Part shown: positions 43,781-45,061 of the stretch, piece by piece | Numbering within the stretch: position 1 is the stretch's first letter | Layout of the letters: each line of letters starts with the position of its first letter | Assembly: GCF_900114265.1 (NCBI RefSeq) | Contig: NZ_FPKV01000001.1 | Location: 992,001-1,056,000 of the forward strand | Source of the DNA: Flaviramulus basaltis | GTDB lineage: Bacteria > Bacteroidota > Bacteroidia > Flavobacteriales > Flavobacteriaceae | Direction: 5' to 3' | DNA length: 64,000 nt | Position numbers and translations under genes: made by a program | Notes under the pieces: model-generated | Database searches by the model: none | Told to the model about the DNA's origin: nothing | The model's input: only the letters and a program-made list of their open reading frames with translations

Positions 43781-44188
43781 TTAAGCTTCCTTTTTTAAAC
43801 TTCTATTAAGTAATCCCATAGCAACATAAAGCACTGGTGAAATTAATATTTCTTGAATTGTATGAGCAAAATCTTTTAAATTCCGACTTATTTCCATAAT
43901 AAACCAATCAAATAAACCCATACTAGTAATAATACATAATCCGGAAATATGAATAAGATGCCAAATAGAAGACATCCAAGAATCCTTCAGTTTTCCAAGA
44001 TGAAAAGTCCCAATTATATATACTAATATTGTAACACCAAATCTAATGAGATGAAAGGTTAGTTTAGGCAGTAATAGCCATTCTTGACTCTCAGTTATAA
44101 AAAAAAGATAATACCAAGAGTAGATAATTATTATAAATATAAGTCCAGATATAAAACGAAATTTATCCGATTTGTAGGGGTTGTTCAT
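43781..44188 (-). CDS. Exosortase-associated membrane protein
   Basis: 135 residues with four predicted membrane helices (about 13-30, 40-61, 74-92 and 110-127). Small loops carry basic residues. I do not recognise a named family. Its start overlaps the end of the exosortase gene by 26 bases, so it is almost certainly co-translated and part of the same system. Many Bacteroidota exosortases have such a small accessory membrane protein. Role unknown. Confidence 0.7.
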   Translation of the reverse strand: MNNPYKSDKFRFISGLIFIIIIYSWYYLFFITESQEWLLLPKLTFHLIRFGVTILVYIIGTFHLGKLKDSWMSSIWHLIHISGLCIITSMGLFDWFIMEISRNLKDFAHTIQEILISPVLYVAMGLLNRSLKKEA

Positions 44189-44765
44189 TTTTTAAATGAA
44201 TTTTTCTAGAGTAAAACATCCACATTAAAAATGTAGCGGTATATACAGTTGCTTTAAATAAATAATGATGGGCAAATTCAAAATAAGCATGAAAATATTC
44301 TCTTAAGTAAATTAATCCAGTGCACCTAAGAATATTTATTAAGTCAATTAAAATTACACCAATGATAATATAAAGTGTTTTACGCCAAAATTTAGAAGGC
44401 ATACAAACAATAAAGCCAATATATAAAACCATTAACTCCAAACCATTGCAAACATCAGCAATAAATAGAACCAACTTGTCATTGTGATATATTTGAGAGG
44501 CTTGTTCTTTTACCAATAAATCTCCTCCATCATCAACAAATGTAGAAACTTCTTTTTTTGAGGAAAAACCCGACATATCACCTAAGTTGTTTAATACAAA
44601 AACAGATGCTTCTCCAACATGAGTTGTTAATGGATGATCAAGAATTTTTGAATCGGACAAAAACAGGCCGTAAACCAGTTTCCAAACTATAAAAAACAAC
44701 AAAGCTTTTCCTAAGAAAAGCCTTATTGGTAATGGGATTTCATTTTTAAGTGAAGTAAAACTCAC
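44163..44765 (-). CDS. Exosortase/archaeosortase family transpeptidase
   Basis: 200 residues with several membrane helices. The catalytic triad of exosortases is visible: Cys106 in ADVCNGLELMVLYIGF, Arg147 in NILRCTGLIYL, and His166 or His167 in EFAHHYLFKATVY. The protein should cleave its substrate's C-terminal sorting tail at the inner membrane and pass the mature part on. The start is GTG 44765, which shares its G with the stop of the substrate gene (TAGTG), showing translational coupling. It overlaps the accessory membrane gene by 26 bases. I cannot assign a named Xrt subclass with certainty. Confidence 0.88.
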   Translation of the reverse strand: MSFTSLKNEIPLPIRLFLGKALLFFIVWKLVYGLFLSDSKILDHPLTTHVGEASVFVLNNLGDMSGFSSKKEVSTFVDDGGDLLVKEQASQIYHNDKLVLFIADVCNGLELMVLYIGFIVCMPSKFWRKTLYIIIGVILIDLINILRCTGLIYLREYFHAYFEFAHHYLFKATVYTATFLMWMFYSRKIHLKNEQPLQIG

Positions 44766-45061
44766 TATTTTTTGTTTTCACGTAGCTTTTTAACTCCAAA
44801 AGCTGCTGCACCTAGCAATAATATACTCAAACCTCCATCTAATGGAATTGAGTCATTTCCTCCGCCTTTATTGCATTTTCCGAAATGGCTTGTTCTACCA
44901 CATTTTCCGCACTTTTTGTTATTATAATCATGTTGACCATGAGTAGGAGGAGACCAAAACCACCACCATCCAGTAGCATATGTATTGCTCGTAAAAGTTA
45001 GAGCAAATATTATTGATAATACAGTGATAGTTTTAGATACAGTGTTTTTTTTATTTTTCAT
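44765..45061 (-). CDS. Small exosortase substrate with PLDGG-type C-terminal sorting signal
   Basis: 98 residues from ATG 45061; an upstream in-frame start at 45088 would add nine residues ahead of the signal peptide and is less likely. Signal peptide 1-29 (ending NTYA), a Trp-rich start (GWWWFWSPP), then a Gly/Lys/His-rich segment with Cys51, Cys54 and Cys63 (KKCGKCGRTSHFGKCNKGG). The tail is tripartite: IPLDGG (72-77), a hydrophobic helix (78-90) and a basic end KKLRENKK. That is the layout of Bacteroidota PEP/PID-CTERM-like sorting signals. The mature peptide would be only ~40-45 residues. First gene of the exosortase operon. Confidence 0.82.
   Translation of the reverse strand: MKNKKNTVSKTITVLSIIFALTFTSNTYATGWWWFWSPPTHGQHDYNNKKCGKCGRTSHFGKCNKGGGNDSIPLDGGLSILLLGAAAFGVKKLRENKK

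What the first reader, a model, noticed from the sequence alone, without database searches (positions are those of the whole stretch)
43781..45061. Compact exosortase system dedicated to one tiny Cys/His/Gly-rich substrate
Three overlapping minus-strand genes encode a 98-aa protein with signal peptide and tripartite C-terminal tail (IPLDGG, hydrophobic helix, KKLRENKK), an exosortase with Cys106/Arg147/His166-167, and a four-helix membrane protein. The mature substrate would be ~40-45 residues with a CxxC-x8-C pattern and a Trp-rich start, too small for most enzymes. It could be a surface-attached metal-binding peptide, a modified peptide or a signal. I cannot identify its role from known systems.
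Basis: partly seen in the sequence, partly recalled or inferred. Interest (0 to 1): 0.75.

Follow-up and report, generated by a model that had tools for sequence, protein, structure and literature searches.

The report
Unnamed exosortase with its own tail
Some marine bacteria carry a second, so far unnamed protein-sorting enzyme of the exosortase family that always comes with the same partner membrane protein and its own version of a protein 'address tag' on tiny, fast-changing secreted proteins; it is a real new branch of a known kind, and its biological job is still unproven.

Summary
Window 43781-45061 (minus strand) encodes a 98-aa secreted protein with an exosortase sorting tail, an exosortase and a four-helix membrane protein. 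'Dedicated to one substrate' is wrong as written: the genome has three PLDGG-tailed proteins, plus one PIDGG protein and a second exosortase (XrtF). A weaker form of dedication holds strongly. Among 249 genomes of the family, the third-gene profile occurs in 13, and the PLDGG...GAxAFG tail pattern in 12, all among those 13; the 13th has a one-residue tail variant. None of the other 236 genomes has the tail, though about 134 have an XrtF-type exosortase. All 46 related exosortase loci carry the third gene, and nearly all have a tailed small protein close upstream. The exosortase forms its own clade beside XrtF and XrtX and scores below every subfamily cut-off in NCBIfam; the third gene matches no family. 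I read it as an uncurated exosortase subtype with its own accessory protein and tail class. The substrates' mature parts are hypervariable (11 to about 90 residues). A subset shares zinc-knuckle-like CX2CX4[HC]X3[CH] or HXHX3CXH motifs, so metal binding is plausible only for some. The product's fate is inferred.

The parts
44765..45061 (-). Substrate: signal peptide (about residues 1-29), mature part of about 43 residues with Trp-rich start and CX2CX4HX3C, then PLDGG-CTERM tail (residues 73-98)
   Evidence: NCBIfam PID_CTERM 42.3 bits; alignment with 14 relatives; motif counts
44163..44765 (-). Exosortase of an unnamed subtype between XrtF and XrtX; C106, R147, H166 invariant
   Evidence: TIGR04178 54.6 bits (cut-off 23), XrtX 126.7 (cut-off 170), XrtF 68 (cut-off 90); alignments; tree
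43781..44188 (-). Four-helix membrane protein (here called g3), obligate partner of this exosortase; no NCBIfam or Pfam family
   Evidence: no detectable relation to the XrtF- or XrtX-associated proteins
44767..44845 (-). Coding stretch of the PLDGG...GAAAFG...KKLR sorting tail; an 83%-identical DNA copy lies in another substrate gene of the same genome
   Evidence: (69-bp match at C27:529765)

Best explanation
This is an exosortase sorting cassette of a subtype not yet curated in NCBIfam. Shown by sequence: the exosortase keeps the catalytic Cys/Arg/His; it forms its own clade; it always travels with the same small membrane protein; and within the flavobacterial clade it co-occurs with one version of the PID-CTERM tail (PLDGG...GAAAFGxKKLR). 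That tail class sits beside, and separately from, the XrtF tail class (PIDGG...YGxKK) in the same genomes. Inferred: each substrate is exported by Sec and trimmed by signal peptidase, and is held in the inner membrane by its tail. The exosortase cuts near PLDGG through a Cys thioester and passes the new C-terminus of the 11-90-residue mature peptide to an unidentified envelope acceptor (lipid or polysaccharide precursor). The partner membrane protein helps recruit the substrate or the acceptor. The mature peptides are hypervariable envelope or matrix peptides, most likely serving surface attachment or the extracellular matrix as shown for the XrtF system; some of them could bind metal.
For: Catalytic residues invariant. 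Tail matches PID_CTERM above cut-off. Third-gene profile in 13 of 249 family genomes, tail pattern in 12 of 249, all within the 13 (G019, the 13th, has GGAAFG); Fisher 1e-19 or lower, ignoring relatedness. Within one genus, G019 has both and G247 neither. All 46 homologous loci have the third gene; tailed protein within -80..350 nt upstream in 37, further cases seen in L075, L080, L112 and L118. Genomes without an adjacent tailed gene carry one elsewhere (G123, G212, G547, G554). Separate clades for XrtF (99) and this type (98). The two tail classes stay apart. Adjacent substrates: mean pairwise identity 0.78 in the tail, 0.19 in the mature part. Phenotype of the XrtF system from PMC10936215. 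Polysaccharide-type neighbours (MBOAT, carbamoyltransferase, glycosyltransferase) at some loci.
Against: Cleavage, transfer and acceptor are untested. The 13 genomes are related, so the co-occurrence P value overstates independence, though each is from a different genus. Some distant members pair with XrtF-like tails (G358 PVDGG...AAGLGYG; L118 PIDGG...AAGIGYG; L117 PINNG), so the PLDGG/GAAAFG specificity is a property of the flavobacterial clade, not of the whole branch. XrtF processing of PLDGG tails in the same cells cannot be excluded. The polysaccharide context is absent at the window's own locus (neighbours are nadD, gmk, yicC, gpsA, a LysM protein).
Confidence: 0.8

Rival explanations
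1. It is simply a divergent XrtX system, already known, and the third gene is the XrtX-associated membrane protein in diverged form.
For: Best subfamily match is XrtX (126.7 bits); same gene order of exosortase followed by a small membrane protein; XrtX-like member L052 has an NF046082-like neighbour (26.6 bits, below its cut-off of 75).
Against: Below the XrtX cut-off of 170; of 25 XrtX rows in the tree 23 form a fully supported clade and the other two also fall outside this one; the third gene gives no NF046082 match and profile comparison 0.7% against one XrtX-associated protein. That comparison used one sequence, so remote homology is not excluded.
Confidence: 0.15
2. Dedicated one-enzyme, one-substrate system making a surface metal-binding (zinc-knuckle-like) peptide.
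For: CX2CX4HX3C in the window recurs exactly in Algibacter lectus and A. miyuki, and with Cys for His in Flavivirga and Yeosuana; HXHX3CXH recurs in the genome's own paralogue and three other genomes; both far above shuffles (11 vs 0.03 and 4 vs 0.02 expected).
Against: Three PLDGG substrates in this genome. 40 of 63 substrates have no Cys, and Winogradskyella/Hyunsoonleella mature parts are 11-15 residues such as QGPPGGATDTQDAI. The motif was defined after seeing the sequences, and relatives are not independent.
Confidence: 0.12
3. Processed mature peptides are released as signals, bacteriocin-like or host-active peptides rather than anchored.
For: Very small, hypervariable, in some genera only 11-15 conserved residues.
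Against: No transporter, receptor, immunity or modification gene is conserved with the operon; sorting tails of this architecture are used for anchoring where tested (ArtA, PMC9263693).
Confidence: 0.12

Closest known systems
XrtF / exosortase F system (TIGR04128, TIGR04127 flavo_near_exo) with PID-CTERM protein (NF046080)
   Same: Exosortase plus overlapping downstream small membrane protein; tiny signal-peptide proteins with P-x-D-G-G tails; same genomes
   Different: Exosortase 28% identical over 112 aa to the genome's own XrtF; associated proteins not detectably related; XrtF substrate is usually one Pro-rich peptide with PIDGG...YGxKK, in the window's genome encoded away from XrtF, while here 1-4 PLDGG...GAAAFG proteins, mostly with one beside the exosortase
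Exosortase X (XrtX, NF046081) with NF046082 XrtX-associated membrane protein
   Same: Highest-scoring named subfamily; same two-gene arrangement
   Different: Scores under its cut-off; separate clade; associated protein does not match NF046082
EpsH/PEP-CTERM exosortase system (Haft 2006, PMC1569441) and archaeosortase A/PGF-CTERM (PMC9263693)
   Same: Tripartite tail; polytopic membrane protein with Cys-x-Gly and Asn-x-x-Arg motifs; diverse secreted targets
   Different: Short exosortase (200 aa), PLDGG instead of PEP or PGF, few targets, Cys 2.2% against 0.4% reported for PEP-CTERM proteins

Membership tests
Exosortase/archaeosortase superfamily (TIGR04178) | Profile match above curated cut-off | tested here: met
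   54.6 bits, cut-off 23; Pfam PF09721 27.2, cut-off 25.7
Exosortase/archaeosortase superfamily (TIGR04178) | Invariant Cys (C-x-G), Arg (N-x-x-R) and His | tested here: met
   C106-N-G108, N144-I-L-R147, H166; C106, R147 and H166 invariant in 44 sequences. The Gly four residues after His in EpsH (PMC1569441) is Phe170 here.
Exosortase/archaeosortase superfamily (TIGR04178) | Cleaves and transfers a C-terminal sorting tail | not testable with these tools
   Needs a deletion mutant and mass spectrometry
PID-CTERM sorting domain (NF046080) | Tail profile above cut-off, after a signal peptide, at the C-terminus | tested here: met
   42.3 bits, cut-off 26, residues 73-96 of 98; signal peptide judged by eye from the sequence, no predictor was run
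XrtX (NF046081) | Score of 170 bits or more | tested here: not met
   126.7 bits
XrtX (NF046081) | Neighbour of family NF046082 | tested here: not met
   No NCBIfam hit for the third gene; the only genome-wide NF046082 trace, 12 bits, lies at the XrtF locus
XrtF (TIGR04128) | Score of 90 bits or more and TIGR04127 neighbour | tested here: not met
   68 bits; third gene no TIGR04127 match; the real XrtF pair is elsewhere in the genome (L008: 244.9 and 143.7 bits)
Dedicated (single-target) sorting system | One target in the genome | tested here: not met
   Three PLDGG proteins, one further PIDGG protein

The most novel reading that the evidence does not exclude
Two insulated exosortase pathways run side by side in one cell, each with its own tail code and its own accessory membrane protein; the second one coats the envelope or matrix with tiny hypervariable peptides that in several lineages are metal-binding knuckles.
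Probability: 0.25. Interest if true: 0.65.

Novelty: new variant of a known kind. Interest (0 to 1): 0.45.

Why it matters
It adds an exosortase subtype with a family-less obligate partner, and it gives a natural pair of exosortases in one cell with distinguishable tails. That makes two open questions directly testable in marine flavobacteria: what in the tail decides which exosortase acts, and what acceptor the product is joined to. The substrates are small enough (down to about 11-15 residues) for the processed C-terminus to be read directly by mass spectrometry.

Tried and rejected
Literature search for PID-CTERM, XrtX and XrtY gave nothing relevant; Haft 2012 is not held. Homology of the third gene to XrtF- or XrtX-associated proteins by hhalign: 6.9% and 0.7% probability, so not supported. 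Fold searches of the third protein gave only generic helical bundles (Foldseek best E 1.4; best Z 9.9, within what helical bundles give by chance). Fold search of the exosortase model gave no convincing match in the PDB. An enzyme-like or folded mature substrate was rejected: low complexity, median 50 residues, no shared sequence.

Full report
1. The observation. On the minus strand the window encodes, in order, a 98-aa protein (44765-45061), a 200-aa exosortase (44163-44765, GTG start) and a 135-aa membrane protein (43781-44188); neighbours overlap by 1 and 26 nt. The tail of the first protein matches the curated PID-CTERM sorting domain at 42.3 bits (cut-off 26) and the second protein is an exosortase (TIGR04178 54.6 bits, cut-off 23), but the second stays below every subfamily cut-off (XrtX 126.7/170, XrtF 68/90), and the third matches nothing in NCBIfam or Pfam.

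2. Not one substrate. The genome (4.19 Mb, 32 contigs) has four PID-CTERM proteins and two exosortases. Three substrates carry PLDGG: the window's; a 101-aa His/Gly/Asn-rich one at C27:1304273; and a 131-aa one at C27:529755, whose tail-coding DNA is 83% identical to the window's over 69 bp. The fourth is a 65-aa Pro-rich protein with PIDGG. The second exosortase is XrtF (244.9 bits) with its TIGR04127 partner (143.7 bits).

3. Conserved unit. Thirteen genomes of the family (the window's included), each from a different genus, have this exosortase (62-79% identical to the window's) followed by the third gene (56-84% identical) (alignments). A scan of named bacterial genomes found 46 loci, 44 in Flavobacteriaceae or close MAGs (Tamlana, Algibacter, Winogradskyella, Flavivirga, Yeosuana, Mariniflexile, Seonamhaeicola, Hyunsoonleella and relatives) and two in distant Bacteroidota MAGs. 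All 46 have the third gene (weak in L118, where hhalign gives 93%). A tailed gene ends within -80..350 nt of the exosortase start in 37; L075, L080, L112 and L118 have one slightly outside that range or with a variant tail. L084, L097, L098, L105 and L110 have none nearby, but four of these five genomes were searched and have PLDGG proteins elsewhere.

4. Tail class follows the enzyme. In 249 family genomes the third-gene profile occurs in 13. A DNA pattern for P[LIFM]DGG-x6-GAxAFG occurs in 12, all among those 13; the 13th, G019, has PLDGG...GGAAFG. None of the 236 others has it, although about 134 have an XrtF-type exosortase (number by difference). Fisher P is about 1e-19, which ignores relatedness. 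One genus holds a positive (G019) and a negative (G247) for both traits. XrtF-only genomes usually have a single tiny protein whose tail is PIDGG...YGxKK; the genomes with the second exosortase mostly keep that protein and add PLDGG proteins. Outside the flavobacterial clade the tails beside this exosortase look more like XrtF tails (G358, L118) or differ (L117), so the PLDGG/GAAAFG version is clade-specific.

5. Phylogeny. A quick maximum-likelihood tree of 92 exosortases (SH-aLRT only) separates XrtF (99), the main XrtX clade (100) and this type (98). Long branches make the positions of L052, L053, L117 and L118 unsure.

6. The substrates. In 63 PLDGG-type substrates the tail is nearly fixed and the part between signal peptide and tail has a median of 50 residues; by the heuristic cleavage sites mature parts run from 11 to about 90 residues. 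For exosortase-adjacent substrates mean pairwise identity is 0.78 in the tail and 0.19 in the mature part, with exosortases at 0.59. Winogradskyella and Hyunsoonleella peptides are only 11-15 residues. Trp clusters (16 of 34 adjacent substrates) and two ligand motifs recur: CX2CX3-4[CH]X3[CH] in 11 proteins (0.03 expected from shuffles) and HXHX3CXH in 4 (0.02 expected). These motifs were defined after inspection and partly reflect descent (five Flavivirga-type sequences), so they support metal binding in a subset only.

7. The third protein is modelled confidently as a four-helix membrane bundle (pLDDT 88) without a meaningful PDB match. Its position parallels the XrtF- and XrtX-associated proteins, but profile comparison shows no relation. 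Its strict pairing makes an accessory role likely; what it does is inferred.

8. Mechanism. Established: exosortases are Cys/Arg/His membrane enzymes proposed to cut the tail and pass the protein to an unknown acceptor (PMC1569441), and the relative archaeosortase A needs its conserved Cys and two Arg and leads to lipid attachment (PMC9263693). Shown here: the invariant residues, the pairing and the operon. Inferred: cleavage near PLDGG, transfer to an envelope acceptor, and a role in the envelope or matrix. The nearest phenotype is F. johnsoniae xrtF and its partner, whose deletions reduce sand colonisation, strongly reduce biofilm and abolish zorbs (PMC10936215). Three loci (L084, L097/L046, L110/L049) lie beside an MBOAT acyltransferase, two of them with a carbamoyltransferase, which fits polysaccharide modification, but the window's own neighbours are housekeeping genes.

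9. Verdict. Real, conserved, and a new variant of a known kind: an uncurated exosortase subtype with an obligate family-less partner and a co-distributed tail class. 'One dedicated substrate' is refuted; 'dedicated tail class' is well supported within the flavobacterial clade.

Noticed in passing
L006:1393-1590 (genome C27:884771): The XrtF-type PID-CTERM protein is a 65-aa protein whose mature part is only about 15 residues, mostly proline (QTPPPPGPPPPGLL), and most sampled XrtF-only genomes have exactly one such tiny protein.
   Followed up: partly
L119:6049-6974 (Confluentibacter sediminis): A second copy of the cassette in which both exosortase and third gene are broken into fragments, still with an intact PLDGG gene upstream.
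   Followed up: no
L053:6953-7525 (same genome as L055, G144): A 46%-identical exosortase without the third gene or a nearby PLDGG gene, a possible orphan paralogue.
   Followed up: no
L084, L097, L110 upstream of the exosortase: A divergent MBOAT O-acyltransferase (with a carbamoyltransferase in L084 and L097) stands where the adjacent substrate gene usually lies, in one subclade.
   Followed up: partly
L044:7113-7586: The substrate contains four near-perfect repeats of HTHYRGCGHSGYGGG, a candidate metal-binding repeat.
   Followed up: partly
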